Source: Tubulanus polymorphus
Lineage: Eukaryota; Nemertea; Palaeonemertea; Tubulaniformes; Tubulanidae
Assembly: GCF_964204645.1 (NCBI RefSeq)
Contig: NC_134031.1
Coordinates: 20,581,307-20,645,306, forward strand
Reading direction: 5' to 3'
Length of the DNA stretch: 64,000 nt
Each line of letters begins with the position of its first letter. Position 1 is the stretch's first letter. The notes beneath the pieces were generated by a model that did not search any database, was not told the origin of the DNA, and saw only the letters and a program-made list of their open reading frames with translations. Shown one piece after another: positions 6,701 through 32,921 of the stretch. Position numbers and translations under genes: made by a program.

Positions 6701-9700
6701 TCAGCCATTTTGTGCGTAGAATATACTGTATTTGTTTGAGAGCTACCGTTTCATATCACAACAAAATTCTTTGTTTTTCTATTTGAGCACTTTCCATTTT
6801 ATGTTTGTTTGAGTAAGACACCTGTAAGATCACGACCCTTGGAATTTATATTAAATCTAATCACAAAACGCAATGTCCGCGCTCCAATTTTAACTTAGAA
6901 GTCTAAAGTTCTTTTAAGATATCACTCAATTCCATATACAGAAGAACCTCATTACAATGAACTTGAGGGGAAATATGCCGATTATAACTGATAGTTCGTA
7001 ATATTTAGTGATGAAATCATTAGAATTTATGCATTTGGCACAAAATTCTAGTTTGACAATAGTGAATAAATTGTTATACTGGAGGATGTTGTAATGAGGT
7101 TTCACTATACATTACATTATACTCTGTTACTATTCAGATATTTTTTTTTAGAGTAAGATATTCCACAAAACTTGTGCCTTTTGCTACGGTACATTACACT
7201 GTCTACTTACCAAAAACATTCACACATACAAATAACGCCTTTAAACTAATTTAATCTACAATAGTTAGGGTTCAATATTACAAGATTTTCAGATAATACA
7301 TCCTTACAAAAATTACAAGCTGCACCCTCAAAATGGAGTCACAAACATAGTAGAAATCAAGGGTCAGTTGCAAAATGATTTTTAAACTTAGGTGATGACC
7401 GCGAAAGTGTACCGAAGAGATGCGTTTTTATTTGTAATATTGAACCCATTGAGTACATCATGCAGCAGCATTGCTTATTTTGAATGAAAATAGATCGAAT
7501 TAAGGTAGAGACATCGATCAATCCAGTGACCTTGACCTTGAATTAATAGCGTAGCGCATTAGTCAAAATTTTGCATAAACGAACATTTCTTTAACGGCGC
7601 ACGGACTTCTTGTGTCCTTGTACCCCATCAAACATTACATTTCGGTTACCCAATAAACGTCTTTGAAGCACTGATTTGTTAAGTTCAAGGTCACATTGGA
7701 AAGAATAGAATTAAGAGAAGAATGATGACGAGAGTGAGATATAGAGGCTTACCCATAATAACTTATCCACCATCTAGAAATAAAAGAAAAACAAAACACA
7801 CGAAACATGACAACAACATCGACTAGTCGAATAATGATATCGCGCGATGACCAATCAGGATTGAGCTGACCAATCGAACTGACCAATCACGAGCGACGAT
7901 GACAGTGATTTGACCAATCAAGTGACGGATGGGTGTGGTGAGATTTTGATAAAAACAAGCGCAGTAATTGAGACAGTAGGAGAGAAAATCGAAACTGGTT
8001 GTTTTTAACAGAGAAATTCATGTTTCGATCGATATTATCGTCGAATTGGTTGTTTGAAAATGAAATATCAACTGAAGATAACGCAACGTGATATTTGATT
8101 CAACTGAGTTTTAAATCGTTTCGAATTAGGTCTGGTTTCGTACAAATGAATCCTTAAAAAAAGTTTAAAAGAATAATTTCATGCCATAGTTGATGATAAA
8201 AGGGCACAATAGAGACCAAAATATTCCACATAATTTCACAATATTTCATAGAAAATAATAATTCATACATAGTACTAGAATTAAGCTGACTTGTTGCGTT
8301 TGACTAATCTTAATAATGGGAAGGTAATAAAGAAAGTAAGGCCACAAGTAGAGTAAGGAGACGGTTTGTGACAAGGAGATGAAGAAATGAGTGAGTCAAA
8401 GAGTTCAATAACTTCGCAACACCACATAGTGACGAAAAATGATATTACAATGAATATTCTCTGAGAAAAAAACCAGCACAAAAATCACCACGTACACTGA
8501 CCGAATCTACACATTAAAATACGGTAATTATATATTCAACTATCATTTCTAAACATTGATTTAAATATACCGGTAAATGTTGTATTCATTAGTAAGCGAT
8601 TACTTCTGTAAATAACTTATCGTAAGCTAAGATGTACGGAAACAGTACCGAGTGTAAGATGTACGGAAACAGTACCGAGTGTAAGATGTACGGAAACAGT
8701 ACCGAGTGTAAGATGTACGGAAACAGTACCGAGTGTAAGATGTACGGATACAGTACCGAGTGTAAGATGTACGGATACAGTACCGAGTGTAAGATGTACG
8801 GATACAGTACCGAGTGTAAGATGTACGGATACAGTACCGAGTGTAAGATGTACGGATACAGTACCGAGTGTAAGATGTACGGATACAGTACCGAGTGTAA
8901 GATGTACGGATACAGTACCGAGTGTAAGATGTACGGATACAGTACCGAGTGTAAGATGTACGGATACAGTACCGAGTGTAAGATGTACGGATACAGTACC
9001 GAGTGTAAGATCTACAGATACAGTACCGAGTGTAAGATGTACGGATACAGTACCGAGTGTAGACTATATGTATTTTTAGAGAAATGCGATGCGTTAGGTC
9101 GGCCTGTGTTAATGTATTCTATGGACATATTGATTGAACCCCTATTATTCCTGACCTGCAATTCTTGAATAGTTAACCCCTCATGACCAAACAGCTGCAT
9201 TAAATTCACTGCAGTTCAGGGGCTGGTTGCTCAAAAGTTGGTTAGAGTTAACCAGTGGATAGTTGATATGGTGACAATTGAAATCTCATTGCTACTACGG
9301 TATTTAACGGCCGGTTATCTCTAACCAACTTTTGAGTAACTGGCCCCCAGAAGACAAAGAGTCAATTGTTCCAGGATCACATCCAGATTTAAGATTTAAC
9401 TTATTACCGGTAAGCGGGTTTGCCTATAAACCCAGCATAGAAATGCTGCTATTTGGTTTGCAGGGTTAAGATGTGTACGGTAGTTGGAATGGATATTCAT
9501 AAACAAAATGTATGACCAAGATTAGTAGTTGGTGTCATCATCAAATTATATGCGGCCATGCTTGTGTCGGTTCGGAATGGATGGGATTCAAAAATCAAAT
9601 TTAACAGAACGGTCGACAGGTTCCGTCGAGATGTTTGACCAAGCGCGGAGACCAACCAGTTCGATTTGAATTCGGTCTCCACAAATTATCGAGAAAATAT

Positions 9701-12700
9701 CGGTTTATTTTCACATACCTTCGATTTGCACATTAGCATGACTCGATCCAGTAGAAAAATATACCTACAAATAAACGAAGAAATTCACGATTCAGATATT
9801 CATCGGAGAAAACTGAGAAGGAAAAACAAAAACAGTTTTACAAGTTTGTTGCCAATGAGATATCTCATAGTTCTGGTTGCGACTGGTCACTACATGGGCG
9901 GGTACTTCAGATATCCCGTTTTATTCTAGCCCGGGTTTTTCTAATTATAGTTTATCCACGAAATTTGCTTTAGCGATTATACAACGGGCAATCTCATTGG
10001 CAAGCCCGCTTATGTACCTTCGCACTGGGGCTAGTGTGGCTGGGTTTCGTACCATAGTGAGTCTCGATGCCATTGGGTTCCAATCCCTGCCTACTATTTG
10101 TATTCCGACAATCAGAATGACACAAATCCTAATTGGCTGATACTTTAAACAAGCAGTTTCAGCCTTAATGCTTATTGGTCAATTCAGAACAATAGCTAAG
10201 TAACAAATAGCTACTAACAATGGCAACCAAGAGATAACGACTAGGACCAAGTTCCACAGTTGAGAGTTAGAGTTAACTCTTGAGTTAAAATTACCGGGTA
10301 GTTCATTTTGAATGAGTTAACTCTGAGTCAAATCTTAACTCAGAACTGTGGAACTGGACCTATAAGTAGCAACTAATCACAGTGGCAGCAGCTTGTTTAA
10401 ATACTTCAATCAAATTACAAATTTCGATCAAAACAAACATCGAGATTATAAGATTTCTAATTGAAGTTACCGGTACCTAGTTCTTGACCGAGGATCGTCG
10501 TGTGATTTGACACGTAGCTCGCCGTCTTTCTGTAGTCGACCGTAGTCCCTCAACGACGTGTTCTCTGGCTGTATTCATAACAAAAACACACACACATACA
10601 CTTTACATATACATACAAACGTACCAGTACATGTACAATAACAAATATATATCTGAAATACTTTTGAACCCTTCGTATTTATCTAATTAGTCCCTCAATC
10701 TACTGGACATCACTCAGGACATTATTGGCAGGTTCAAGGATTGTTTTTCCCAATTGAAGCCAAGGGGTAGAGGCGAGAGAAGAATAGATCAGGATTATAT
10801 GTACCTGTTAAATTGTAGTAGTTTCACCTAAGATGAGAGTAATTTGACATGAAATATTAATCTGATTTTCTGAGTATTTTGATATTTTAGGGAGTAATTG
10901 AGGTAAAGAGTAGAAAATATGTAATCTCAAATAGAAGCCGTTGTCAAGTTTGGAAAAATGTTAGGCGTACTCAATGGCGCTACCAGGATTCAAACCTATG
11001 AACCTTGGAATAATGAGACCAGTGAGTACGTGACAAAAAGTGAGTATGAACTGCTAGGGCCCTCAGAATCCAGTAATAAAAGTCAATAAAATCAGGGATG
11101 GATTTTCATTTGCGAGGAATAGTCTCAAATATGCTGTTCAATGATAGTAGCAACCAAAATGAACGACGCACGTCTGAGGACTAATGGAATGGGACTTATT
11201 TGTGGGTGTTGTCAACCCATCTGAAGTCATACGACAGTTCAGAGTAGTCCTAAAAGAAATACCACATCAGGCAAATCTTATGTCAATAGAACTGGAAGAA
11301 AACTTGGGATTTTTCTGAGGAAATATTTTAATAATGTCAACATTAACAAACCTCGTTTTAGTATTACGTACCCATGTGAGATCAATTATACTGAAAAAAA
11401 TATAAACAATAATATAATCTTCGACATTAATTTGTCATCAGTTAAACAGGTATCTACTGATCAGAGTGTTTCACAGTTAACGGTATAACGCACTTACCTG
11501 CTTTGAATTTCATTTAATAATTTCAACGATTCGTTGTCTCGTTTTACCTCATTTACATAAGTTGATAAATCCTAGAAAATAAACCATGTATTATAAACAG
11601 ACCCGTAGCCAGGTACCGGGTACTTTCTGTAAGGAGCATTCATCAAATGTAGTAATAGTCAAGGTTCACTATTTCAACCTGAACATTACAGATCAATAGA
11701 GTATATAATTCATTAATACGTATGACCTACGTGCATAGCATCAAGAGCCTTTTCAAGACCAGCCCTATCTTCATGGTCGCGGTCTGTTTGTTTTAATAAT
11801 TCCTGTTCAAAGAAAAAGATTTCTAGGTTAGTGGCGCCGTTCTGATGATGAAAATCAAAATCGAAGAACTTTTCTCATATAGAAAGTTGATCCCTGAAAG
11901 TTAATTTACTTTGAGCGTAATAAACTGACCTTTAATAATAGATGATATTTGAGTACTCGTTGCATTGGTACCGACAGCAGATCGCGTAGTCGAAATTTAC
12001 CATCATTCGCTTTCTTCTGACATTCCTGAAATCGCAACAAATCCAAAACCACATGAGACTCTTTATTATCTATTTACTTTTCGATTATGAATACAGGGCT
12101 AATCCTAGAAAGTCCTTAATGACAAATTCTTACCATAATATGTGACTGATAGGTATCATTTTTGCCAATTTCGTCGATGTGAGCTTGTGCGTCTGGCAGG
12201 TGACTACAAAAATCCCCGTATATCAATAACTTTTGTTTCCACTTCAAGAAACAGTCGCTGATTTTCGGTAATCCTATCGTGCAAGCTTTATATAGTTCAC
12301 TATGAAACCCTGTATGAATCTGTGCCAACTCCTGCAATGAAAAACAAACGTATTTATATTCATACCTCGATCCAAGTGGTGAACAAGTCAGTGACCATAC
12401 TTAAGATTTTTTTCAAACTTTTTCATTTCCATGATCCTTGAAAACTCAGTAAGTAAACTTCGAATTTATCCAAATTCAACAGGTTGAATCTATGCTATAT
12501 AAACGTACCTCAACATGTCTGAAGATGACGTCACGATCTCCCTGTGGTATGATGCCCCTCAACGGTCTCATAAAATGCTGAAACGTAAACGACATTTTAC
12601 TACGAACCGATAATCAGTACAACAAAAAAGACCGGTCTAACTGAACAAACAAGAACATAATCAAAACAGCTTCACATGTTTGAATCACTTCAAACTGCTA

Positions 12701-15700
12701 AATCTGATCCATATCGCTTGTAGCGAGCATTTAATAAGAAATCATTGTATACTCACAGTCATTATCATATTGAGAGCATCGACGTAATTCTTCTCGGTTT
12801 CAACCAGTTCTTTTACGCAATAATCGCGCTTCGATTTCGGTTCTTCCGTCGGACTCTATATAAAAACAGTAGAAATTCTTAATTCAGTTTCACGAACACA
12901 TACTCAGCAATTTCACTTTATCCACGTTCAAAAATTATTTCTTCATCCTTCACCGTTTCATACAGATATTTTTACCGTTTTGCCATAAAACCATCGTCAT
13001 TTCAACTCCCATTTTGTTTCGTGATTTCAGAGTAAAATGGGGAGGTCGGCGAATTGAAGGCGATCGCTTCGTGATCATGCATGACACAATATGAAACATT
13101 TGTGGGATTTTACTGTTATTTTTGCATCACGGATTATTGTGATCTTATCGATTCATTGAATAAATCTAATAAGTCTACGTATGATATGTATATACCGGAC
13201 AAGCAAAGCAAGCACATTCATCACAACGAAAATCAGAATTCATCTTGCTAGATGAATTCTGCATTCGAAGATTAAAATCATTGTAGATTTGTTAAAAACT
13301 AACTAAAATCGGTACAAGGAAAGTTAGTGAGGTTAATACCATTCAAAAAATCTTTAAAAACCAAGGTTTAAGCAGATCAGGCTATTTATTCGTGAATGCA
13401 AATGCTTTGACTAAACTCCTAAAAAGAAACTTAAAAGTTTATAACTCAAATTCTGCAGATCTGCCGCTGTCCTGGATTTCCAAGATAGGGTTAGTACATA
13501 TAGATATAATTTAACAAATGAGGACATTTTTTCCGCCGATAATGATGACGATGAAAGGTGTAATGGAAAGAAATTGAGGAAAACTCAGTCTGCGAGATCT
13601 CACCAAAAATATCCGGGACCTTATGACTGACTCAAAAATGAAGACTTTTTACTTTTGAAGCACAAAACAGCACCTTCATAATTCAAATTCATCTCACTCA
13701 TACAGCCTAGATAAATCTTCCCCCAAAGACACAAAACATTACACATAAAATACTCTAGTTCTTTGGTACCAGTCGCCCGATCAAAGATTAAGCCTGCAGG
13801 ACATCTTTAACCAACAATTGAGCTACTGGCACCAGGTTTTCACGAAGATTTATTTGGAGGAAAATGAGAAGTTTATCGAGGCTGTATAATTCGTGTGCGT
13901 TTCCATTTTTGTAAACACTATTACAATAGCTCATATAGATATACATAATGTTATAAAGCGATGCATAAAACAAGGACATATCATCATCAAGTGTAGGAGG
14001 TTAATAACGATGACCAGGCCCTGAAACCGATTGGATCCATAGCACTAGTCAACATTTAGCAAATAATATTCAATGTATATGTTCATTGTATTCAGATATA
14101 ATATGCCAGTTGCGTCGAGGACAGTTGCCTAAAAGTAGATTGAAGTTCAACTTTCTGATGAATACCAAACCATTGAAATGATGAAATTTTTTGAATCGAC
14201 ACTATGTCAATTATCCACAGGTCAACTTGAACCAACTCTTAAGCAACTAGCCCTCGAAATTTCATAAATTCTCACATTTCTTCCAAAAATTTTGACTGAA
14301 ACATTTGGATACCAAAATGGAAATTCTTCCAAACTTTTTTACTAAAGAAAATGATCCTTTTCATACAGATACCAGGGTGTACAGATTGGGTAGCAAGTTT
14401 CTACTGTACGAAATGACTTTTTTGAAATTTCGGATAATTTAAAGCCTTCCAAAAATTGAGAGTAAACTTAAATTAAAAATAGAATTTGAATTGAAAATGA
14501 ACCAGAAACTAGAAACAATTCTGATTTTGAGAGTATTTTGATATTTTTGGGCGTAGTTGAACTCCAGTAGTAAAATAGAAACTACTCTCAAATACAGAAA
14601 TAGTCGTACCCAGGTCTGCATGTACATAATACTCTAAATGAGAATTGATGAAATTCGATTGGATACTAAAAGTTAGCAGGTCACAAAGGTCATTCATACA
14701 TGTGGCGCGGTAACCGAGGAGGGACGGTTCGCGACAAAAACGTCGTAAATTTTTTCGCCTTCTTCGTCGGAATCGGAATCCATGTCGTAAACGCCGGCTG
14801 AGTGATTCTCCAAACCGCTGAAAATATTAGAAAAACAAATAACGCGATGGCTACAAACGTTATCGAGATCTCGCGTACGTGACTCGTTCGTCAGCAGCCT
14901 CCGTGTCCATCTCCAGTTACACGTATTACTCCAGTTCCAAGAAGAGTTGGATTAAATTCATCCGATCACCCAATACATTGTCGCTATCTGAAAATTTGTC
15001 CAATCAGTGTTTAGATATTCCTATGTGGTATTGAACAGCAATTAAAATCTATACGTCAACCAAAACTTCGACCAATGACTGGAACCGTGAAAGCCCTGAA
15101 ATTTGAAATAAAATGTCGTAATTCATCGAGATTGTTATGGAAAATTCACCACAAATATATTGCCGCAGAAAAGCCTTGATATAAGAAATGCCTTCAAAAT
15201 AAATGAGCCTGAAATATAATAAGAATGAGCCTTCTGACGCAGTCGACTGTGGATATCAAGGATTCCACTCATGGCATCCACCAGACGCCAATATAGTGCA
15301 TTACGACATCACGATGCCGGATTTTTTTTCAGATTTATCTTACTTCTATGAACAAATGATGAATGAAATCGTGCCATATTTTAACCCTAAACATCAATCT
15401 GGGTTTATCTTATCTATCGAGACATGATTTGCTTAGTTTTTGAAGAAAGGCGATAAAAATCTAGATCAAAAGTTATTAGAAAATAAACGAAATTTTGATA
15501 GAGTTGTCCAGTGCACGTCAATTAGCGGGAACTCTGGTGGCGCGGTGTCCCCATCGAATACCGTTACGAGATCTGAAATAAAGAGATGATACATATCTAG
15601 CGAGATGAACTAAATCATAGAGGTCGCAGACAGCTACAAGGTAGAGCAAAGATTGAGGGAAAATTATCTGTTAGATCTAATACATAATCACACGCACACC

Positions 15701-18700
15701 AGACGAAAGAAATCATAGCTAATCACTTCATCATTATAGATAGATACAGGGAGCAGACAAACGAAAAAGCTAATTCTATTCTTCTATGTCTATTCTATAA
15801 ATAAAACATCATAAATCGAACGCAGATTCCTTCTTTTTTTTTTAAGGCGCAGAGAATCAGTTGCCGTTAATAATCATGTGAACAAGATGCTTATCATCAT
15901 ATCATCATAGCAGAAAATGATTTCCAATCAATGCAGGTACTGATTATAGACACCACCATTTTATTGCTAGAGCATCGTGTTTATGCAGCTGATAGCTGGT
16001 TCTCAACACAATAAAGAGATTTAACTGCGTTGTTTTTTCTGAACCAATCACCCTTTCAGACTTATGATACGGCAGACAGATCTAAAGCAGTCAATCTTAG
16101 CGTTACTTGAAAGTGACTTCAAAACGAAACTCTACGGTTAACCTAGGCCTCAAACGATGATACTTATTGACTAGACCAGACCGTTTTATCATTTTTCATA
16201 AAGAACCTTCTTGAAAAATCTTGCAACGCAATTTGCATTCTCGGTTAAAGATGCTTGTTATTTATTCGAGAGTATGCAGGTCTAGTATGAAACTGAAATT
16301 CACCTTGATCCAAAAAGACTCGGTACATGTACCGGTACATCAAGTTGCTTTGTATCATTTTAACGTGTTTCACAATCATAATAAACTGTGGACCCAGATC
16401 CACTGCTCAAATGAACAATCTTACGCATAGTTTAGACTTTAACCGATTTCGAACTCGGTTTGGCTTAGTAGTACGTATCATACGTTCTGAAAGGGTACGG
16501 TACAGAAAACATTATCAAATCTTTTTATTTCATTCACAAGAAAAAGATGTAGATTTTGAGACGTCCGAAAAATGTATGGTAGTTACGTAGTAAAGAATTT
16601 AAGAAAGGATCTGAAAAAACCGCGTGCAAACATCAAATAAACCCATTTCTAGATGGCACTGTATTCATCGAAACATGGTCTTGTGATACATCAATGTTCA
16701 TACTACTCAATCAATACAATAGAGATGATATTTGTGTCAACCACGACACAGATTATTCAACGTTTCTCGACTATTTCTTATAGTGATCTTTATGAATACT
16801 GAAGATGACTTATGTGAGCGTTTGGCCATTTAACACGTCCACTGCCACTGAACTAATACCGCTCTGCACCCAATTGCCACTATGAATATACTCATATAGG
16901 TTGGCGCTGGAGCTGTTAGAGCTTTAGCTCAAAATTGACCAATGAACTTTGAGAATGAAGCAGAGCTTTTTCAACAGCCAATCAGGAACTGTGTCCCGTC
17001 TGCTAAAGTGCAAATTTCAAACTGCAAATAGGAAGAATCAGCTACGAATATATCCATAGTGGCGCTGGTGACAGAACCGTAATTATGAGTATGTTCTTAG
17101 CCGGCAGCGAACGTGTTAAAGGAAATACATGATACGCCAGTGCCATCTATTAACGAGAAAACGTAACGTAGAAACACTACTCCAAAAAGATTAGGCAAAC
17201 ACAACGTAATGAATAACCAGCATGTTTTCGTTATATACCGGTTGTTGAGCGCGACATGAACAGAGATCCTCGTAAATATCCTGTTCCTCTTCCATCGGGT
17301 CTCGATAGATACTCTCGGTATCGTTCTCCATTTCCCTAAAGTAGCATCGCGTAAAAAAAACGAACAACATTAGAACATACAGCGGTCATTGTGAATGGGA
17401 TGACGATATTAACTGTCACCAAATCACTGATGAACATGTATAGGCTAATTATATAGTACTCTCGTCAGGAGAGACATGATCCCCATCCCGTACTGTTTTT
17501 GTTTTCATAAACCAGGATCCAGCTCTATTGTTCTTGTCTCATAATTCATCTCTCAGATTAAGACATTGAATGCACTGTTTCGCTCCCGGCAGGTGAAGTG
17601 GGCTTGTAATGGATACACCAAATAAACATAAATAAATTATGGACTAATACCTTCTCTAGAGTCTAACTTTTCTGAGATCTATAGTACTGGACCCTTTGAG
17701 TCAGAGATAGGTTATAAGCCCTGACCAAGAAACATATCTTCACCGGGGTTCAAAACCTAAAAGCTCTCGGTTGTGAGTCAAAACTCAATCTACCAAGTCA
17801 TGACGAGGGCAGTAAGACAGTTTGAAGTGGATAACGTGGTCTGGGATTACGTACATACTACGTGCGCAGGTATGAAAACATCAAAGTAGTATTACTGGGT
17901 AAGAAATGAACAGGATTCTGAACAGGATTCCCCAAACAGGATTGTAATGATCGATGATCATTGAACATACCAGTAGTTTCTATAGGCAGCTATACTGCAG
18001 AGATCTTACAGCTAACCGTATTGGTTGTCAAATATAAGAAGTGTTTTACATGACAGATCCTCGATGAAGTTTGTAAATCATTAGTTGTTGCTCCAGCACT
18101 GGTTGGCTAATAAACTATATCGACGTCATGTGCAGGATGTTAATACAGGGCGACGGGTATACTGGCAGCTCAACAGGTTCCCCATCACGTTATCCCTGAG
18201 ACAGAAATCAGTTCCCTGTGTTTTCTAGAATGGTGGTCACCTCGTTGTGACATTCCACGAGAACACCATCAGAATAACCCAGCACGGTAGATAAACGATT
18301 TTTTAAACAAACAATTCATTCATTTTCGTCGTCGTCGTAAATAAGGAAGGAAAGCGCTCAGCGAGCTCAGAAAAATCTTCGTGCAATTTAAGTACGAAAC
18401 ATTTCTTTTCTTTAAAATTAAATCTTCATTATGAATGAATTGATCAGTAAAAATACTTACGGCACAAGTAAATCCAATCCATTATAATATTCGTGTTCAA
18501 TGTCGACTGATTCATTTCGAGGCGGAAAACCGCTAAAATAAAACATAAGAAATTTAAATTACAAATTAAATTAAATCATTCCTGAAAGAAATATTTCAAC
18601 TTTATACTACTGATTATAGATGAATTTGGTCCCATGGATTATTTTCGAACCTTCCTCTAAAAAAACTAATAACTAACCTGCCAACAGCTGCCTGAGCTTG

Positions 18701-21700
18701 TGGAGTTTTCGACAGTTTTGATAAAGTGCTGATCACCTATTAAGAAAAAAGAAAAAAAAAACGCGATTAAATCTTAGTGCGATAATCAATAACGAATGAA
18801 CTTGTTTTTAAACTGATTAAATCTGTCGATCTGAAATATACTGTAAATGTGATGTAAGCAAATAATTCTGATTTTTCAGCCTGAAGTCGAAAGAGATAAA
18901 AGTAAAAGGAAGTGATAAAGTTTGAGCGAAGCGTTCACTTCCACGGATTCTTCTAAGTATTGTTTTTCACTGATAAATCACGCGTAGTGAAGATATAACG
19001 TTTAAGTGGGAAAAGAAAACCGAAACATAACAAGATTATGAACAGTTACTGTTTTAACCCACGTCGAAACTTCAAGCATTAATTCACCAGGATCTAATCC
19101 CATTATACGGCTCGTGCAGAGACGATTTGGCCCTCGAGTCAAATTTGGGCTGTGAGGCTTCCCTGGGTTCTTCTAATTCTCTGAGTTTGGCAGGTTTTCC
19201 AAGACAGTGGCCAACTTGTTACAAACCTGTCGGGTTACCAACCGACAGACAGGTAGACGATTAGCTAAAGCCAACTTGAATCATGCATCAAGTATATCTA
19301 TCATGTCTCGACCAAAGCCACTCTGATATTGTGGCCGTGTGCTGAGGCGCTATTAACATCATCAATCAGGGTACCGACAATGCTACTAGGGTAGCGAGCA
19401 AGGATTCTCCGGGTGGCCAGTCCCAGCTGAAATGCACATTGTTTCCCCTGACTTGAATTGATTTGCTAAGAATGTTATCAACTAACACAGTCAAATACGT
19501 AAGACATGGACGAAAACTGTTTCACTTAACCCGCAATCTAGCAAACATATTTGCTTGTTTAATCCCGGAGTTTAAGCTTTTTTTTTAACAAATTTCCAGA
19601 CTATTCCCTGATTTCTTAAAGGAAAGAAAATCCTCAGACTTTTTCCTGATTTCCAGGTATCCGTGACGATCCGCCAGTGGTTTTACTGGGTTATCGCGCT
19701 TCAGTGAAATTTATACCATACACCGAGTGAAAAAGTGAATCTTATATCTATCCAATAACTTATTCGATAATCTTTAGATTAATAGCCAGGTCAATGATCT
19801 CCCCGTCCCGGGTCGATAACAAACAGCATTCGAGGATTTGAAAGGGTTAAAACATACCTTGCCGAAGTTTCTCATATCGAACAGATCGTACGAATCGAAC
19901 AAATCACTTTCTCTCATCGCGAACGTGATTTTACACGTTTGTAAAAACGCTCGTATATTCTTCAGGCATAAGAACTGCAACGATAAAAAGAGACATTTAA
20001 CGTAAAACTTTAAAAATTGGAACATTCCGCGCTTTAAAGTCATCATCTATCTCCGTCTGTTCAACAGGGAATGATTTCATGCGTTCACCGTATTTTGATG
20101 ATCACTTCCTGAAAATATGGTACCGTATTTTGATGATCACTTCCTGAAAATATGGTGAAGCGCCCTGTACCACAATTCTACAGGGTGGCGCCACTTTCCA
20201 CCGATTCACAATGTCGAGTTTTCCATGATTTTTCTCGGTTTTAACAAAAAATTAGAGTAATTTCTAGGATTAAAATTTCACAATTCATTCATTTTTCACA
20301 GCGAAACATGCACAGATGAAGAAACAATAAAATGGTCAATAAAATATTCACATTTCCTGAGCTTTCCAGGTTTTCCAGGTCAGTAGCCACCCTGCATCCC
20401 AACCTAAAGTTCATCGAAGAGTTTGCGATAATCTCAAGGGATTTTTTTTATAAACCAGGAGAATTTAGACAGAGGTATTTTTTCGCACATGATTTAAAGT
20501 AGCTGTCTGTCTCCCGCCACCAATTACCCAATAATGGGTTACTATGGAAACAACTACCGGGCAAACATTTGTAACAAGTAATTTGTACATCGGACGAAAA
20601 CCATAAACTATGAGAGCTGGACAAAAAGGTCAAGGCCTTTCATTGCCCTTTAATACGTGATAAAACTATCTTGCCTTAGTAAGAGCATTGGCAGAAAGAT
20701 TCAGTAGACTCCCGTACTTGTCCACATGGACAAACGATCAGGTTTAATTGAAAGTGAACTCGTGATAATTCAAATTTTAAGAGCATATATTTCAATAGGT
20801 TAAAATCTATGACTGAGAGAAAACAAACTACTACCCGATATCAGGAGGGGGGGGGGCGTATTTTGTACCAGTTTTTGGAGTTAATATTTGACATTAGTAT
20901 TCAATAAGGGAATCAGGATCACTTGAAAAATGAAACTGCGAAAGAGGAGTTCACAACTGAAACACCCACAGGCCAATTTGAAAGACAAATGATTTCTGTG
21001 AACTGAATATCAAATAAAATCAAACTGTCTTCGAAAGATAAGTCGTCACCTCGCTGAACAGTTGTCATATTTTTAAACGTAATGATGGTCTCAACTGAAG
21101 ACGACATAAAGCAGGTTGGACTGTATTTACTTTGCTTTTCCAGAGCATCATTTACTGGCTGGTTGACATTTCAAGATAGTCAATAGTAAGCCCTACATAG
21201 ATTTGCAGCTTTAAACTACACTGGGGGGTTATAATAAAGGTCATTGATTCAATAATAAGATATGATGATTCTTATTTGAGCTCAAGGTTGTCATTATGAA
21301 TCATTCTTATGTAGTCACATTTGCTGCCTGACCCAAAACCCCAATACACCACACAGAATTTGATAGTTTAAGCTCTTTTCGTCATTTATCTTAAAAATAT
21401 CGCAGTGGATATTTTACTGTATGCGGCAAAGTGTTAACTTCCGCTATCTTACCATACATCGTCGCTGATTGGCTGATTAATGCCGCCCATGCGCAGAAAG
21501 GTGCGCGACTTAGAAAATTCGAGGAAAGTGTGGAGAATAGAGTTAGAGAAAATAGAGCGGATTGAGCGAGACTCGAACCCGGGCCAGTAAATTACTAGCG
21601 CAGCATCATACCACCAGACCACCGAGCTCGCTGAAAACCAATCTATCTAATAGTACTTCACCTTACCCTAATCCTATTCCTAGGGGTAAAACGGACCCTA

Positions 21701-22686
21701 ACCCTATGGGTCCTTTAGACCCTAAACCCATCGGAACCCTAACCCTAACCCCAATAAAATGATTATAGTAATGATGTAGGGTAAAATAGCGGAAGTTAAA
21801 TATCCACTTCATTACCTTTTGGTTTAAAACAAACTACAAATCCTTGATGTAACTTTGCCTTCACTCAAATGAATAACATAGCAGTTTGTTACTGACTAAA
21901 CCACAGTCCTGTTTATGACTGAATAAACTGCAGTCCAGTTAGGCCTACTGTCTAAAACAAAAAAGTCCTCCTGTTGCTGCAGTCAGGAAGGTACTGAGTA
22001 AACCGCACGTTGGCCTAGGGGAATCAGGGGGAAGCAATAGGTGATGATTGAATTATCATTAAAATCACCAAGTCAGTGTGTTAGGCGCGCTTGAAGAATT
22101 CTTTTGAGGATTCATTGAGACTGAACCATATAACTGACAAAACATGACTAAACCGCAGTCCAGTTACTGACTAAACAGCAGTCCTGTGACTGACTACAAA
22201 GCAGTCCTGTGACTGCCTAAAGCAAAGTCAATAGTTAAGAGGCCTTCAGTGTAAAAAAGTAGTAGTAGTCGAAGAAAATGACGTAAAACTACATCATTAC
22301 CAGTGAAATGGTGAGCGATATAAAGTAGACATTCAATTCATCTTACGATAATATATAAATAAAATATCATTGCAGAGAGTAGAAACAATACCTTCAAAAT
22401 AACCAAACCGAAACTTATTTTTTGACAATCTAATTACACCTACCTGCGACATTTGAGGTCGGGAGTTGAAGTCTTTCGGATCGACGCAGTTCGCCGATAG
22501 AACGTTCAATAGGTGACATATTAATACACCGTCTCGTAGACTTTGTGCTAGGTGTACGACCTCGGCGTCTGGCCCAGTAGCTTCGTGGTTCGCCGGTAAA
22601 ACTTTACACCTGACGAGCCATTCTACACACATTCGCCATTCTTCCTTGTTAGCCGCAGCCATTTTGTTTTTTTCCAGATGATTCAA
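2715..22686 (-). CDS. VAV: Vav-type Rho guanine nucleotide exchange factor (partial, 3' end not visible)
   Basis: Vav proteins load GTP onto Rho/Rac/Cdc42 at the plasma membrane downstream of tyrosine kinases. Reading the minus strand gives CH, acidic tyrosine region, DH (RhoGEF), PH, C1 and the first SH3 domain in canonical Vav order, about 720 residues per isoform. Exons: 22444-22686, 19858-19974, 18678-18736, 18461-18532, 17239-17335 or 14700-14817, 12757-12855, 12509-12577, 12134-12331, 11930-12025, 11731-11802, 11498-11571, 10477-10568, 9719-9764, 5610-5699, 5152-5261, 4689-4822, 4297-4341, 4101-4199, 3616-3740, 3367-3429, 2715-2861. All splice sites are GT-AG, and phases agree except at the 11498/10568 junction. 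Two starts are possible: Met1 at 22686 or Met9 at 22662. The second better matches the usual Vav N-terminus. The SH2 and second SH3 (about 170 residues) are missing from the window. Confidence 0.93.
4101..4822 (-). other. VAV: Vav C1 domain and proline-rich linker
   Basis: Exon 4689-4822 gives [20 protein letters not shown] and then VFFQGYLCK. Exon 4297-4341 gives [15 protein letters not shown]. Exon 4101-4199 gives a linker with [20 protein letters not shown]. In typical C1 domains the last half reads C-x2-C-x4-H-x2-C and ends with one more Cys. Here it reads [12 protein letters not shown], so the second Cys of the pair is Ser, and no final Cys follows within 20 residues. The proline-rich linker precedes the SH3 as in other Vavs. 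Confidence 0.88.
7753..7773 (-). other. VAV: Possible optional 21-nt Vav exon (MVDKLLW)
   Basis: Minus strand: acceptor tatttctag, then seven codons ATG GTG GAT AAG TTA TTA TGG, then donor GTAAGC. Both flanking Vav exons (9719-9764 end, 5699 start) are in phase 0, so inclusion would add MVDKLLW between the PH strands without a frameshift. Known Vavs have no residues here. It begins with ATG and lies about 80 bases downstream (minus orientation) of four CCAAT boxes, so it might instead be an alternative first exon. Chance occurrence is quite possible. Confidence 0.25.
7849..7922. promoter_or_regulatory. Cluster of four CCAAT boxes in a Vav intron
   Basis: The motif GACCAAT occurs four times in about 70 bases (CCAAT at 7851, 7870, 7883 and 7914), always in the same orientation. 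It matches the NF-Y core ACCAAT(C/G). NF-Y sites in series are typical of promoters or enhancers (established), but no TATA or initiator is evident. It could equally be a small degenerate tandem repeat. Confidence 0.35.
8632..9060. repeat. 27-bp minisatellite, about 16 units
   Basis: Direct repeats of a 27-bp unit (atgtacggaWacagtaccga + gtgtaag). The first four units have 'ggaaac'; the next ten have 'ggatac'. One degenerate unit and a final 'ggatac' unit follow. Because 27 is a multiple of 3, the plus strand is open ([18 protein letters not shown]), but the array lies inside a minus-strand Vav intron with no start context or family similarity, so the ORF is judged fortuitous. Confidence 0.95.
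9220..9350. mobile_element. MITE-like inverted-repeat element
   Basis: Terminal inverted repeats: left arm 'caggggctggttgctcaaaa' followed by gttggttagagttaacc, and right arm 'ggttatctctaaccaactt' followed by ttgagtaactggcccccag. No coding capacity. Structure and ends resemble the elements at 10244-10360, 36221-36317, 37197-37334, 39707-39812 and 40531-40672. Confidence 0.6.
9853..10140. mobile_element. tRNA-like SINE fragment
   Basis: About 10018-10085 (gcactggggctagtgtggct ... gggttccaatccctgcc) matches about 57605-57675 (gcactcgggctagtgtggca ... cgttcgaatccctgccg). Both have a Pol III B-box-like GTTCNAATCC and an A-box-like GGCTAGTGTGG. The segment just upstream (about 9935-9995) matches 57512-57570 in inverse orientation. 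Best read as a tRNA-derived SINE or a composite relic; too degenerate for a functional tRNA. Confidence 0.5.
10244..10360. mobile_element. MITE-like hairpin element
   Basis: Ends 'ggaccaagttccacagttga' and 'actgtggaactggacc' are inverted repeats, and the interior is also palindromic (gagttagagttaactctt / gagttaactctgagtc). No ORF. A close relative lies at 36221-36317. It is inside the Vav intron. Confidence 0.65.
11498..12855 (-). other. VAV: Vav DH (RhoGEF) domain exons
   Basis: Six exons in uninterrupted phase 0 (12757-12855, 12509-12577, 12134-12331, 11930-12025, 11731-11802, 11498-11571) encode the Dbl-homology domain. Landmarks are [20 protein letters not shown] (CR1), [47 protein letters not shown] (CR2), [20 protein letters not shown] (CR3), and [17 protein letters not shown]. 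This domain catalyses GDP release from Rho GTPases. The last exon ends with two bases of a split codon, which does not match the phase at which the next recognisable exon (10568) must be read. Confidence 0.93.
14700..18736 (-). other. VAV: Vav acidic region with two alternative tyrosine exons
   Basis: Exon 3 (18678-18736, [19 protein letters not shown]) ends the CH domain. Exon 4 (18461-18532) carries [10 protein letters not shown], the equivalent of the first regulatory tyrosine (VAV1 Tyr142 region), and ends with two bases of a split codon. Two exons can follow. Exon 5a (17239-17335, 97 nt) reads [18 protein letters not shown]. Exon 5b (14700-14817, 118 nt) reads [20 protein letters not shown]. 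Both supply the one base that completes the codon and both end in phase 0, so each joins cleanly to the DH exon at 12855. Each carries two acidic-context tyrosines like VAV1 Tyr160/Tyr174, whose phosphorylation relieves autoinhibition in known Vavs. Confidence 0.85.
16830..17120. mobile_element. TTAA-ended MITE-like element in Vav intron
   Basis: Terminal inverted repeats 'ttaacacgtccactgcca' and 'ggcagcgaacgtgttaa' bound about 290 bp with no coding capacity. A diverged second copy is at about 31705-31935 (left end ttaacatgttggctgccactg-like, right end ggcagcaaatgtcaaa). A TTAA at both termini is the target signature of piggyBac-type elements (established); autonomy or family cannot be shown here. 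Confidence 0.55.
20090..20157. repeat. Tandem duplication of about 32 bp
   Basis: The sequence 'accgtattttgatgatcact' + tcctgaaaatatggt occurs twice in tandem, at about 20088-20122 and 20122-20156, in the Vav CH-domain intron just before the CAGGGTGGC element. Confidence 0.7.
20180..20396. mobile_element. Element with CAGGGTGGC inverted ends
   Basis: Left end 'cagggtggcgccactttcca' and right end 'ccaggtcagtagccaccctg' are inverted repeats around about 215 bp. Related sequence in the other orientation is at about 29575-29743 (ends ggaaagtggcgccaccctg), with partial matches at 34930-35035, 19560-19670, 42330-42425 and 42780-42870. No ORF. It has the character of a non-autonomous DNA transposon. 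Confidence 0.5.
21565..21640 (-). mobile_element. tRNA-like SINE head or tRNA pseudogene
   Basis: On the minus strand 'gctcggtggtctggtggtat' (A-box-like) is followed by 'cccgggttcgagtctcgctc' (B box GGGTTCGAGTC). The outer AGCGAG/CTCGCT bases can pair. The would-be anticodon loop lacks U33, so a functional tRNA is unlikely. It directly abuts the telomere-like stretch. Confidence 0.45.
21655..21760. repeat. Degenerate interstitial telomere-like (CCCTAA)n
   Basis: Many variants of CCCTAA (ttaccctaatcctattccta, cggaccctaaccctatgggt, aaccctaaccctaacccc) lie within about 100 bp on the plus strand. A single ctagggttagggttatc occurs at about 22903. TTAGGG is the metazoan telomere unit. The array is short, impure and internal, inside the Vav first intron. 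Confidence 0.7.
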
Positions 22687-25600
22687 TGGGGAGCTGCAAC
22701 GCCAGCTGTCCCCTACAGGTGGCGCTCAAGTCAAAGTGGGTGAACAAAATTGGCCATTATCCATTTGAATTTTCAGATGGCCTAGAAGCCCCTGTTCTCG
22801 TGGCTTTTTCACAAACAAGAGGTGGTGAGGTTCGAACCCTAATTCAATTGCGATTAACTTCGCCTGCACTGGTCAACCAGTCTAACCAATCTAGGGCCTA
22901 GGGTTAGGGTTATCTTCTTAGACCGGCAACCAGTCTCTCTGGACCTGGTAACCAGTCTATCGTGGTAATTGTTGCAAAGAAAAATGATATCACGAATATT
23001 TTAATTTTAATGATCCACCTTATCAGCTGATGATACCATTTAATGATTGTCCTATCAATTTGAAATATTTCTCATCTTACATATTTGTTCTTATTTTAAG
23101 AATATTTAGTATTTTTAGCCCAAAATTACAAATCTTATATTTTCCAGCATGTTTCGCTGTTACAGGGGTACGCCACCGAAATTCCGTAAATCGAAAAATC
23201 TCGCCTTTTAAAACGGTATTATAACCTATTCCACTATCTACTGTCGACGGATTTTAGCGCGTAGAATCATCGTCAGCTGCAGGATGATCGGTAAGAAATG
23301 TTTAAAGCTCATCTTTTATCGTTTATTCGTGTTTATTTTGAGATAACGAAGCGTTGCCATGCGCAATCACTTCCGGGTTGGTCGAAAAGCGATATCAATC
23401 AGACTCCTTTCTTGTAAAAGATGACTTGAAATAGGTGACATCAACCATGTTCCAGCTTGCCTGATGCCCAACCATGTATTCATTATCTAAAGAATTGTTG
23501 AAGGCGATAAGAAACAGAATTTCTCTGACTTCGATGATGATACTGATAACAGATACAACTCTGATGCTCTCTCTCTCTGACTCTGGCTGTGGTGGAAAAC
23601 GCTTCTGCCGCCCTCTGGCACCGGCAATATCCAGACAGGATTCTATTAGGTCACCTTAAACGTTGTGCTATTTCTTGCAAATTTGGCCCTCCGGTGACGC
23701 CCATAAACACGCCCACATGTGATAGTCAAATATTTGAAGGTTTTATTTATAGACAAAAGCCTCATCACACCCCATGGATGCAGTGAAAGTACCAATTCTT
23801 TTTTTGTCGAGTCATCGTTTAAGTCATAATTCATCTGAGTTTGAATGATATTGAAGTATGTCGCAATGGCTTAGGCCTTTAGGTTTTTTTTATAATGTAT
23901 CATTAGATGTGTCCTGTTTATATAAACTACAAATGGAATTAGATATTGACGATAACCTGAATTTATTGTGGGATTTCTCTTGTCTTCATCTAATACGGAA
24001 ACTGTGTATTTTCTCAGCCTTTAAGACGATATCTTTCTCATTGATTGTTTTTGACAAATTCTATCGGTGTTGATATATATCTGAGCTTTAGAAATTAGAA
24101 ATGGTATATAATCATTCGAATATATGATTAATTATCTGGAGATCCCATCTAAGAGCACTTGATTTGAAGAACATTCCTGGGGGGTTTCTTCCGAATTCTC
24201 AAAAGGCTGTAACCGAATGATTCTGGTTTCAAAGGTCAGCTGAAATGTAAGCAGCAAAGTTTAGCCAGGGTCCCTTATAAACAAAATTGCTTTTAAAGAG
24301 GTGTAGGTGCTTGAAACTCCTTTGATTCGGGCGAAATGTCCAAAGATCTTTTAAAACTCCTTTAATTAAAAAAAAATAGGCAACAAAAATGTTTGTAAAC
24401 TGTGCCCAATTCGATACAGTTGGAAGCGGGATTTGTTTTTACCTAAGGAGTCAAGTTTAGTTTAGTGGTTTAAGGATAACAATTTTCTTACAAAACCACT
24501 GAATTGACGGTTTACCGAGATCCTAGTGTACCGGTTAATGAAGAGCCAGTAATAAGGATATGAAAGTGATGCAGAATTTGAAATTTCTTTATTAAAACTC
24601 CTTAATGCCTCCTTATATCCAGGTATGCCTTATCCATATAGGGACCTTTTTAGCGCAAATAAACATTGTCATTGAACAAATATACTTAGTCTATCTAAAA
24701 TATCCTCGAGTCTAAACATTCACCCAAATAATTTATTACAGAAATCAGCGCGATGATATCACAATGAAAACAGATAAAATGCGATGATATAACTTTCGAG
24801 GAACGGTCGTCTTCAGACTTGATTTCATATTACGCGATCCCTGCTATTATACACTGTAGACACACACTGTACACGGATGCTCAACAACAATGACGTAGCA
24901 GCGCTGAAAAACATTAATCAATATCAGCTCGGTTCAGTATCATCAGAAACCACTGCGCCATCGTAGTCGAGTCTCAGGCAAAACATCGAAATAATCTTCG
25001 TCATTTTTTCGTTAATTTTGTAACTGTTTGAGAGAAGTGTCGGTTTAGTCTGCTGCCTGCAGGTGTATTGGATTATATATATATATATATATATATACAC
25101 GCGTGCGGTCTATTAAACTGACAGTAGACATAGACATACTACTTCAACCGGGTCTTTACATCAGCAATCTTTATATCATTCACTCTTATGTGTGAGTATG
25201 TTTTGATAGTTTTATATGATTTGTTATCGTGGATATTGCTGGCATGAATTCTCTTGCTATCTTCGATGATTCATTGTTACCGTAAGTTATGATTTTGAAA
25301 AAGGAATATTGGAATTTAGTCGCTCAGTTAGTAAACTGGCGCTCTCTTGTATTGTGAAGTTTGATGACTCATTATTATAGGCCTAGTGCATTATATTTCT
25401 TAAATCCCATCTTCAATATGCATTTGTTGAATTATTTTATTCAGAGGAATATTCATTATTTTTATATGAATAATGCTTTTAAATAAGTCGTAATGCATCG
25501 GTATAAGGTATTGTCATTTCAACATATGGCTGGCGACAGGCTGTAGAAAATATGAAAGAAATATAAAATTTACTTGCATTCCTTAGAATTCTTATCCAGG

Positions 25601-26456: not shown

Positions 26457-26546
26457 AATGAGGAGCAGTCGTGCACCTCCCTGAATGAGGAGCAGTCGTG
26501 CACCTCCCTGAATGAGGAGCAGTCGTGCACCTCCCTGAATGAGGTA
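26457..26546. repeat. 27-bp tandem repeat, three units plus a partial
   Basis: Three perfect copies of aatgaggagcagtcgtgcac + ctccctg followed by aatgagg. The period equals that of the unrelated-sequence arrays at 8632-9060 and 32712-32870. Confidence 0.95.
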
Positions 26547-31500: not shown

Positions 31501-32921
31501 GGGTCAAGTTTTGATAGTTGTTCCTTACTTCTTACCCCTGTATGCTACGTTGATGTTTTACATCTATATGCAATGCGTTGTTGTTAAAACATCCGATGTT
31601 GATTTCCCTCAGATTTAAAAGAAGAACGATGATGTAAAAGTCATAGTGAATAAGTGAGGGTTTTGCTCGTAACACAAGATGGTAAAATTCATTGATTTTA
31701 GTCGTTTAACATGTTGGCTGCCACTGTGATAAATAAAACAGTGCTGCCCCCTATTGCCATTACGAGTGTACTCGCGTAGATTGGCACTGGAGCTATTACA
31801 GTTAGCTATTGTCCAATGAACATTGAGAATGAAGCAGGTGTTTATTTAGTTCACATTGCCAGCCAAGATAGAGTGCAAAAATCTAACTGTAAATAGGAAG
31901 TATAGCATACTGTTAGCTGGCAGCAAATGTCAAACATCTTTCATAATAATTGACTCATGAATATCGCTAAGATAACCATTATAAGTGATCTAAGACTGGT
32001 CAGTATCATGTGTACTTAATTCGTAAACTCATAAATCCTAAGTACGTAATAAAGAACTTACAGAAATCTACTGCTTAAATTATAAATACTTCACATGTTC
32101 TGGTTATTTCTGAATTACTATTACAATTACTTGTAGATTTGCCTACAGTTCGACAGTCGTGGGATACATTAAACCCGTAAGTCAAAGTATTTTCATTTGT
32201 TATGACTGTGGAACCGGGTCACTTGTAAGAATGTACGATGTCTATCAAAATATTAAAGAATTTTTGTATTATTCGTAAAAAATATAATTATTTGAAAAGA
32301 AAATTAGACGTATTCGAGTTAAATATCAGAAGGGAGACAAAACCACACAGACCGAAATATCCCTATTTCAAGAATGGGGCAAATCGAGAGGTCAATCTTG
32401 AAGGAGGACGTGTCACACCCCAAAGGGCACTTTTATCTCTAAAAATGCAATATTGATCATATTCCTACTCTGAAATGCTCTTAGTTGACAAAATGAAAAA
32501 GGGGACTCAAAATATTTGATGGACAAGTCTCTTTAAGTGCCCTCGGATCCGGCCCTGAAGATAGAATAAGTTGAACGCACTATTCCCATCAAATGAATTG
32601 ACATTTATTTATCTGTGAGTCAGTGGTCACGCGCGTGAAACTGCGTAAACAAGACTAGAAAAATCCATCCGGATAAATAAATTACAGCGCAGTAAAAGCT
32701 TTTGACGATAGACCTCCGCAGCTGAAGAACAGTTAGAAACCTCCGCAGCTGAAGAACAGTTAGAAACCTCCGCAGCTGAAGAACAGTTAGAAACCTCCGC
32801 AGCTGAAGAACAGTTAGAAACCTCCGCAGCTGAAGAACAGTTAGAAACCTCCGCAGCTGAAGAACAGTTTGAGATTTAAAAGTTTCCCATACATAATATT
32901 AGTTATTGTCTATTGTTTCTA
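31501..32921. other. Convergent 3' ends of RABEPK and VARS
   Basis: Holds the RABEPK 3' UTR, a diverged TTAA-ended MITE copy at about 31705-31935, AT-rich sequence, a minus-strand AATAAA equivalent at about 32603, and the 27-bp array at 32712-32870 close to the VARS stop. No further gene is seen. Confidence 0.6.
32712..32870. repeat. 27-bp minisatellite, six units, next to VARS stop
   Basis: Six near-perfect copies of cctccgcagctgaagaacag + ttagaaa begin at 32713, 32740, 32767, 32794, 32821 and 32848. The array ends about 50 bp beyond the VARS stop codon (minus strand), so it is probably transcribed in the VARS 3' UTR. Confidence 0.95.

What the first reader, a model, noticed from the sequence alone, without database searches (positions are those of the whole stretch)
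14700..17335. Phase-enforced mutually exclusive exons encode alternative Vav regulatory tyrosine modules
Exon 5a (17239-17335) and exon 5b (14700-14817) both complete the same split codon left by exon 4 and both end in phase 0. Including both creates TAG exactly at the junction with the 12855 exon. Skipping both shifts the frame into a stop within 15 codons. So exactly one must be used. Each carries two acidic-context tyrosines matching VAV1 Tyr160/Tyr174 (ESIYRD/DIYEDL versus AGVYDM/EKIYDV), the switch that controls autoinhibition. This implies two Vav isoforms with different kinase or SH2-partner specificity. I know of no such arrangement in characterised Vav genes.
Basis: partly seen in the sequence, partly recalled or inferred. 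Interest (0 to 1): 0.75.

Follow-up and report, generated by a model that had tools for sequence, protein, structure and literature searches.

The report
Two alternative switch exons in Vav
An invertebrate Vav gene carries two interchangeable versions of the exon that encodes its tyrosine off-switch, and the reading frame favours using exactly one; this is a known type of splicing arrangement in a gene where we found no report of it, and whether both versions are used still needs RNA data.

Summary
A Vav gene lies on the minus strand of an unnamed 268 Mb genome. Exons 5a (17239-17335, 97 nt) and 5b (14700-14817, 118 nt) both enter in phase 2 and leave in phase 0. Either alone gives an open Vav frame; both together give TAG at the 5b/6 junction; neither gives a stop 14 codons on. 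Each encodes a two-tyrosine acidic module aligning with Vav1 Tyr160/Tyr174; no other acidic module of this shape was found in open six-frame segments of the window. 5a and 5b resemble each other more than chance (3 of 2000 and 1 of 400 shuffles as good), which fits tandem exon duplication. No second Vav gene was found. Best reading: frame-enforced mutually exclusive exons, a known kind, here in Vav's regulatory segment. 'Exactly one must be used' is slightly overstated: a weak acceptor 10 nt inside 5b allows in-frame double inclusion. No transcripts or related genomes were available, so use of both exons is inferred. 5a keeps the Vav1 YEDL residues and 5b has YDVF, so the isoforms may differ in autoinhibition strength.

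The parts
17239..17335 (-). Exon 5a: alternative acidic module, [33 protein letters not shown] (first Pro shared with exon 4); phase 2 in, phase 0 out
14700..14817 (-). Exon 5b: alternative acidic module, [40 protein letters not shown] (first Pro shared with exon 4); phase 2 in, phase 0 out
18461..18532 (-). Exon 4: constitutive; carries the Tyr142-like site (EHEYYNGL) and ends after CC (phase 2)
12757..12855 (-). Exon 6: constitutive; phase 0 start, begins AGT so that T|AG forms after a frame-shifted 5b; start of DH domain
14807..14816 (-). Weak cryptic acceptor inside 5b (...GGAG|AAT, exon start 14807), the best-scoring site that would allow in-frame inclusion of both 5a and 5b
18678..18736 (-). 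Exon 3 (CH domain)
19858..19974 (-). Exon 2 (CH domain)
22444..22662 (-). Exon 1, coding part (CH domain, M...MSQ); end derived from the printed sequence and the genome match
9719..12577 (-). Exons 7-14 (DH and start of PH), including the 19-nt exon 12 at 11372-11390

Best explanation
Exons 5a and 5b are a pair of tandemly duplicated, diverged, mutually exclusive exons in the apparently single Vav gene of an invertebrate. Each supplies the second half of the acidic region (Tyr160- and Tyr174-like sites), while the Tyr142-like site and the DH domain are shared. Each has length 3n+1 between a phase-2 and a phase-0 boundary, so only transcripts with exactly one copy encode full Vav; joint inclusion or joint skipping at the regular sites gives an early stop, presumably removed by NMD. 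Shown: gene identity, open frames, frame incompatibility, 5a-5b similarity, alignment of both to Vav1 Tyr160/Tyr174, no second Vav gene found. Inferred: that both exons are spliced in vivo, that the choice is regulated (both donors are weak), and that the isoforms differ in strength of autoinhibition or in kinase/SH2 partners. 5a keeps the Vav1 174-177 residues YEDL; 5b has YDVF, changed at the positions equivalent to E175 and L177, where other substitutions in human VAV1 raise GEF activity.
For: Frame logic and open models. Vav1 is the best solved-structure hit for either isoform (5b 9e-69, 5a 1.6e-67); the alignment of 5b with Vav1 is gapless from the Tyr160 to the Tyr174 equivalent, that of 5a has a 3-residue gap and keeps IYEDL. 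5a-5b alignment: 3 of 2000 shuffles as good; exon 4 against either, as control, shows nothing (1112 and 1437 of 2000). Intron-copy scan: 1 of 400 shuffles as good. Acidic two-tyrosine module found only at 5a and 5b. Weak donors, 3.7 and 3.8 bits, against 5.8-12.7 for 11 of the 12 other Vav exons scored; exon 13 has 3.1. One Vav locus, one copy of 5b. Tyr142/160/174 are ancient and invertebrates have a single Vav gene (PMC6562523). Frame-incompatible mutually exclusive exons are an established class (PMC5740500 passages). VAV1 Y174C, E175K/V/L and L177R raise GEF activity (PMC10177506 passages).
Against: No transcript and no related genome was available. Codon usage of 5b is only marginally exon-like. 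5a aligns to the Vav1 segment only modestly beyond its acidic composition (75 of 2000 shuffles as good). A weak cryptic acceptor would allow in-frame double inclusion. No splicing-choice element was found. An unrelated stretch scores higher than either exon on splice sites alone.
Confidence: 0.75

Rival explanations
1. Only one of the two exons is used; the other is a decaying relic of an exon duplication, kept open by chance.
For: Both donors are weak (3.7 and 3.8 bits); 5b codon usage is only marginal; no RNA evidence.
Against: Both keep open frames, GT-AG sites, matching phase and two acidic-context tyrosines despite strong divergence; an unused copy would be expected to lose these. Either isoform matches Vav1 about equally (235.4 and 231.2 bits).
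Confidence: 0.12
2. Both modules can be joined in one protein: transcripts use 5a plus a shortened 5b (acceptor at 14807), giving a Vav with four tyrosines in this segment; or 5a and 5b behave as loosely regulated alternative exons.
For: The joined frame is open through exon 7 as tested.
Against: The acceptor needed scores -0.5, against 5.9 for the regular acceptor 10 nt upstream; the other in-frame combinations found score lower.
Confidence: 0.06
3. The frame-shifting joint form is itself the point: inclusion of both exons (or neither) is used as an unproductive, NMD-coupled splicing switch to set Vav level, with isoform difference secondary.
For: Joint inclusion and joint skipping both create early stops; in PMC5740500 joined reads were found for many frame-incompatible clusters.
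Against: Does not explain why both exons keep the same two-tyrosine acidic design.
Confidence: 0.05

Closest known systems
Frame-incompatible tandem-duplicated mutually exclusive exons (class catalogued in human by Hatje et al. 2017, PMC5740500; passages seen)
   Same: Neighbouring exons of similar length, same phase and similar sequence; joint inclusion or skipping shifts the frame.
   Different: Here in the acidic region of Vav; splice-junction evidence is lacking; the segment is a phospho-switch linker, whereas 87% of the human cases lie in secondary-structure elements.
Vav family RhoGEFs (VAV1; PDB 3ky9, 6nf1, 1f5x)
   Same: One gene encodes CH, acidic region with three tyrosines, DH, C1, SH2 and SH3.
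   Different: The Tyr160/Tyr174 half of the acidic region exists in two alternative exon versions; the second tyrosine follows the first by 11 residues in 5a and by 14 in 5b, as in Vav1.
Zebrafish vav2 neuronal 15-nt microexon (PMC12626424; passages seen)
   Same: Alternative splicing near the RhoGEF domain of a Vav changes output (about threefold in an SRF reporter).
   Different: A cassette microexon, not a pair of duplicated exons carrying the regulatory tyrosines.

Membership tests
Mutually exclusive exons (criteria as in PMC5740500, passages seen) | Adjacent internal exons with similar sequence | tested here: met
   ratio 0.189/0.177; 1 of 400 and 3 of 2000 shuffles as good
Mutually exclusive exons (criteria as in PMC5740500, passages seen) | Same phase, and length within 60 nt in steps of three | tested here: met
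   97 and 118 nt (difference 21), both phase 2 to 0
Mutually exclusive exons (criteria as in PMC5740500, passages seen) | Joint inclusion absent, or leading to a frame shift and early stop | tested here: met
   TAG at the 5b/6 junction; a weak cryptic acceptor is a possible leak
Mutually exclusive exons (criteria as in PMC5740500, passages seen) | Splice-junction reads bridging each exon to both neighbours | not testable with these tools
   No transcript data
Mutually exclusive exons (criteria as in PMC5740500, passages seen) | An exclusion mechanism: branch-point proximity, splice-site incompatibility, docking/selector pairing, or frame/NMD | tested here: inconclusive
   Intron of 2421 nt; no U12-like donor (consensus recalled); no pairing above shuffles; the frame route fits, NMD itself untested
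Vav RhoGEF | CH and RhoGEF (DH) domains | tested here: met
   CH 6.4e-16, RhoGEF 2.6e-43; Vav1 best hit
Vav RhoGEF | C1, SH2 and C-terminal SH3 downstream | tested here: met
   on single-exon pieces from about 4.7-4.8 kb of the window and from L009 beyond the window
Vav RhoGEF | PH domain and N-terminal SH3 | tested here: inconclusive
   PH piece 24.0 bits, under its 27.7-bit cut-off; N-SH3 piece no match (fragments)
Vav RhoGEF | Acidic-region Tyr142, Tyr160, Tyr174 equivalents | tested here: met
   exon 4 EHEYYNGL; two tyrosines in each of 5a and 5b

The most novel reading that the evidence does not exclude
A single invertebrate Vav gene builds two proteins with differently tuned autoinhibitory clamps by swapping the exon that plugs the DH active site: 5a (YEDL) a tight, canonical lock, 5b (YDVF, changed at positions equivalent to VAV1 E175 and L177) a leakier or differently triggered lock. 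Splice choice would set the Rac activation threshold per tissue, doing by splicing part of what vertebrates do with three Vav genes.
Probability: 0.3. Interest if true: 0.65.

Novelty: new member of a known kind. Interest (0 to 1): 0.45.

Why it matters
The acidic region of Vav is a well-studied phospho-switch, and mutations in it activate VAV1 in human lymphoid cancers (PMC10177506). A natural pair of interchangeable switch modules in one gene would be a ready-made experiment on which residues set the lock strength and which kinases or SH2 proteins read it. It would also suggest that splicing can supply regulatory diversity in animals that have only one Vav gene (PMC6562523).

Tried and rejected
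Docking/selector RNA pairing between the three introns: whole-intron duplex energies (8 of 14, 14 of 14 and 4 of 14 shuffles as low or lower) and best local ungapped complementarity (23, 127 and 141 of 200 shuffles as good) give no signal. The inverted repeats, one with an arm inside exon 5a, were not tested singly.

A third module between exons 4 and 6: none by similarity. The top splice-score candidate, 15150-15246, has no acidic tyrosine motif and GC 0.36; left unexplained. Second Vav gene: none found with the first 366 residues (19 matches, 10 at this locus with 79-96% identity, 9 elsewhere with 27-48%, 8 of them to the DH part and 1 to the CH part). Second copy of 5b: none. Rfam in 9000-24000: nothing at gathering scores.

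Haplotype or assembly duplication was rejected because 5a and 5b differ in most residues. Branch-point crowding was rejected because the intron is 2421 nt.

Species identification failed: no COX1 match; the SSU rRNA search did not complete; a search for the genome size in papers gave 4 papers, none relevant by title. I made no call to the search for related loci, the DNA search or search_dna_similar, since those collections hold prokaryotes, viruses and plasmids (metagenomes: no quota).

Papers: search listings only; passages of PMC6562523, PMC5740500, PMC12626424, PMC10177506; one whole section of PMC6562523. Splice-site matrices, the U12 donor consensus and the Crk-type pYxxP motif are recalled.

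Full report
What is there. The window is part of contig C7 of an unnamed 267.8 Mb genome. On its minus strand lies a Vav gene. I rebuilt exons 2 to 14 from the sequence; their introns are GT-AG and they join into one open frame with either 5a or 5b. Exon 1 (M...MSQ, CH domain) lies at 22444-22662. C1 and an SH3-like stretch follow within the window, and SH2 and the last SH3 lie beyond its low end. Pfam finds CH (6.4e-16), RhoGEF (2.6e-43), C1, SH2 and SH3 above cut-offs; the partial PH piece is below its cut-off and the N-SH3 piece has no match. The best solved-structure matches are Vav1 (6nf1, 3ky9). A genome search with the first 366 residues of the 5a isoform gives 19 matches: 10 at this locus (79-96% identity) and 9 elsewhere (27-48%; 8 to the DH part, 1 to the CH part). 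So no second Vav gene was found, as reported for other invertebrates (PMC6562523).

The frame logic. Exon 4 ends after CC. Exon 5a (17239-17335, 97 nt) supplies G, exon 5b (14700-14817, 118 nt) supplies C, and both end in phase 0 before exon 6 (12757-12855). 4-5a-6 and 4-5b-6 are open. With both, the 5b/6 junction reads T|AG. With neither, the 14th codon after the junction codon is a stop. I also enumerated alternative sites near 5a and 5b. Every in-frame joint inclusion listed needs a site scoring below 0; the best uses the GAG acceptor with exon start 14807 (-0.5, against 5.9 for the regular acceptor).

Is it more than chance? The two-tyrosine pattern of Vav Tyr160/Tyr174 occurs 3 times in 69,219 aa of open six-frame segments of 25 aa or longer; the 5a and 5b hits carry 9 and 8 acidic residues, the third 1. 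Searching the flanking introns of 11 Vav exons for phase- and length-matched copies, in the manner described in PMC5740500, gives 5b for 5a at ratio 0.189 (0.177 with the full exon); the best for any other exon is 0.081, and 1 of 400 dinucleotide shuffles reached 0.189. Aligned directly, 3 of 2000 shuffles match the 5a-5b score, while exon 4 shows no similarity to either. Among 5 candidate exons of this phase in the interval, splice scores rank an unrelated stretch (15150-15246) first, 5b second and 5a third. Results that weigh less: codon usage of 5b is only at about the 95th percentile of 853 open intron segments, while 5a is above all of them; 5 of the 11 other exons score below zero, so the measure is weak. 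5a against the Vav1 segment is matched by 75 of 2000 composition-preserving shuffles, 5b by 4 of 2000. GC is 0.485 and 0.525 in 5a and 5b against 0.34-0.39 in the three introns around them.

How it most likely works. The exons look like an old tandem duplication, alternatively spliced. Their donors (3.7 and 3.8 bits) are weaker than those of 11 of the 12 other Vav exons scored (5.8-12.7; exon 13 has 3.1), which fits regulated use. Exclusivity at the protein level comes from the frame; whether the spliceosome itself enforces it is unknown. The 2421-nt intron between them rules out branch-point crowding, the donors do not resemble U12 sites (consensus recalled), and intron pairing does not exceed shuffles. 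In the human survey, frame shift leading to NMD is one of three regulation modes drawn, and most of the exclusive exons not embedded in secondary structure are explained by it (PMC5740500 passages).

What the two proteins would do. The alignment with Vav1 puts the second tyrosine of each module at Tyr174 and the first at Tyr160; for 5b it is gapless between the two, for 5a there is a 3-residue gap. Phosphorylation of these tyrosines releases the DH domain (passages of PMC10177506 and PMC6562523). Human VAV1 changes Y174C, E175K/V/L and L177R raise GEF activity. 5a keeps Y-E-D-L at 174-177; 5b has Y-D-V-F. From this I infer that the 5b isoform may have a looser or differently triggered lock. 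Alternative splicing is known to change Vav output: a 15-nt microexon near the RhoGEF domain of zebrafish vav2 raises reporter activity about threefold (PMC12626424 passages).

Verdict. It is a new member of a known kind (frame-enforced mutually exclusive exons). I found no report of it in Vav genes in the searches, which cover open-licence papers only and were seen as ranked listings.

Noticed in passing
window 15150-15246 (-): Exon-like open stretch of the same phase (2 to 0, 97 nt) between 5a and 5b with the best summed splice score of the interval; GC 0.36, no acidic tyrosine motif; unexplained.
   Followed up: partly
window about 15508-15570 (-): GC-rich stretch after a TTTATTTCAG acceptor-like site between 5a and 5b, open in one frame ([24 protein letters not shown]); no clear donor seen by eye; not explained.
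   Followed up: no
window 11372-11390 (-): 19-nt microexon in the DH region of Vav, needed to keep the frame.
   Followed up: partly
window 8628-9061, 21882-21940, 26457-26544, 32712-32869: Four separate tandem arrays that all have a 27-nt unit but different consensus sequences (which covered 1-40000).
   Followed up: no
window about 33.6-40 kb (-): Neighbouring gene is a class I tRNA synthetase: 2 of 3 pieces match tRNA-synt_1 and Anticodon_1, the third nothing; valyl type is my recollection of the motifs.
   Followed up: partly
window 17294-17311 and 15411-15428: 18-nt inverted repeat (89% complementary) with one arm inside exon 5a and the other in the 5a-5b intron; may be chance.
   Followed up: no
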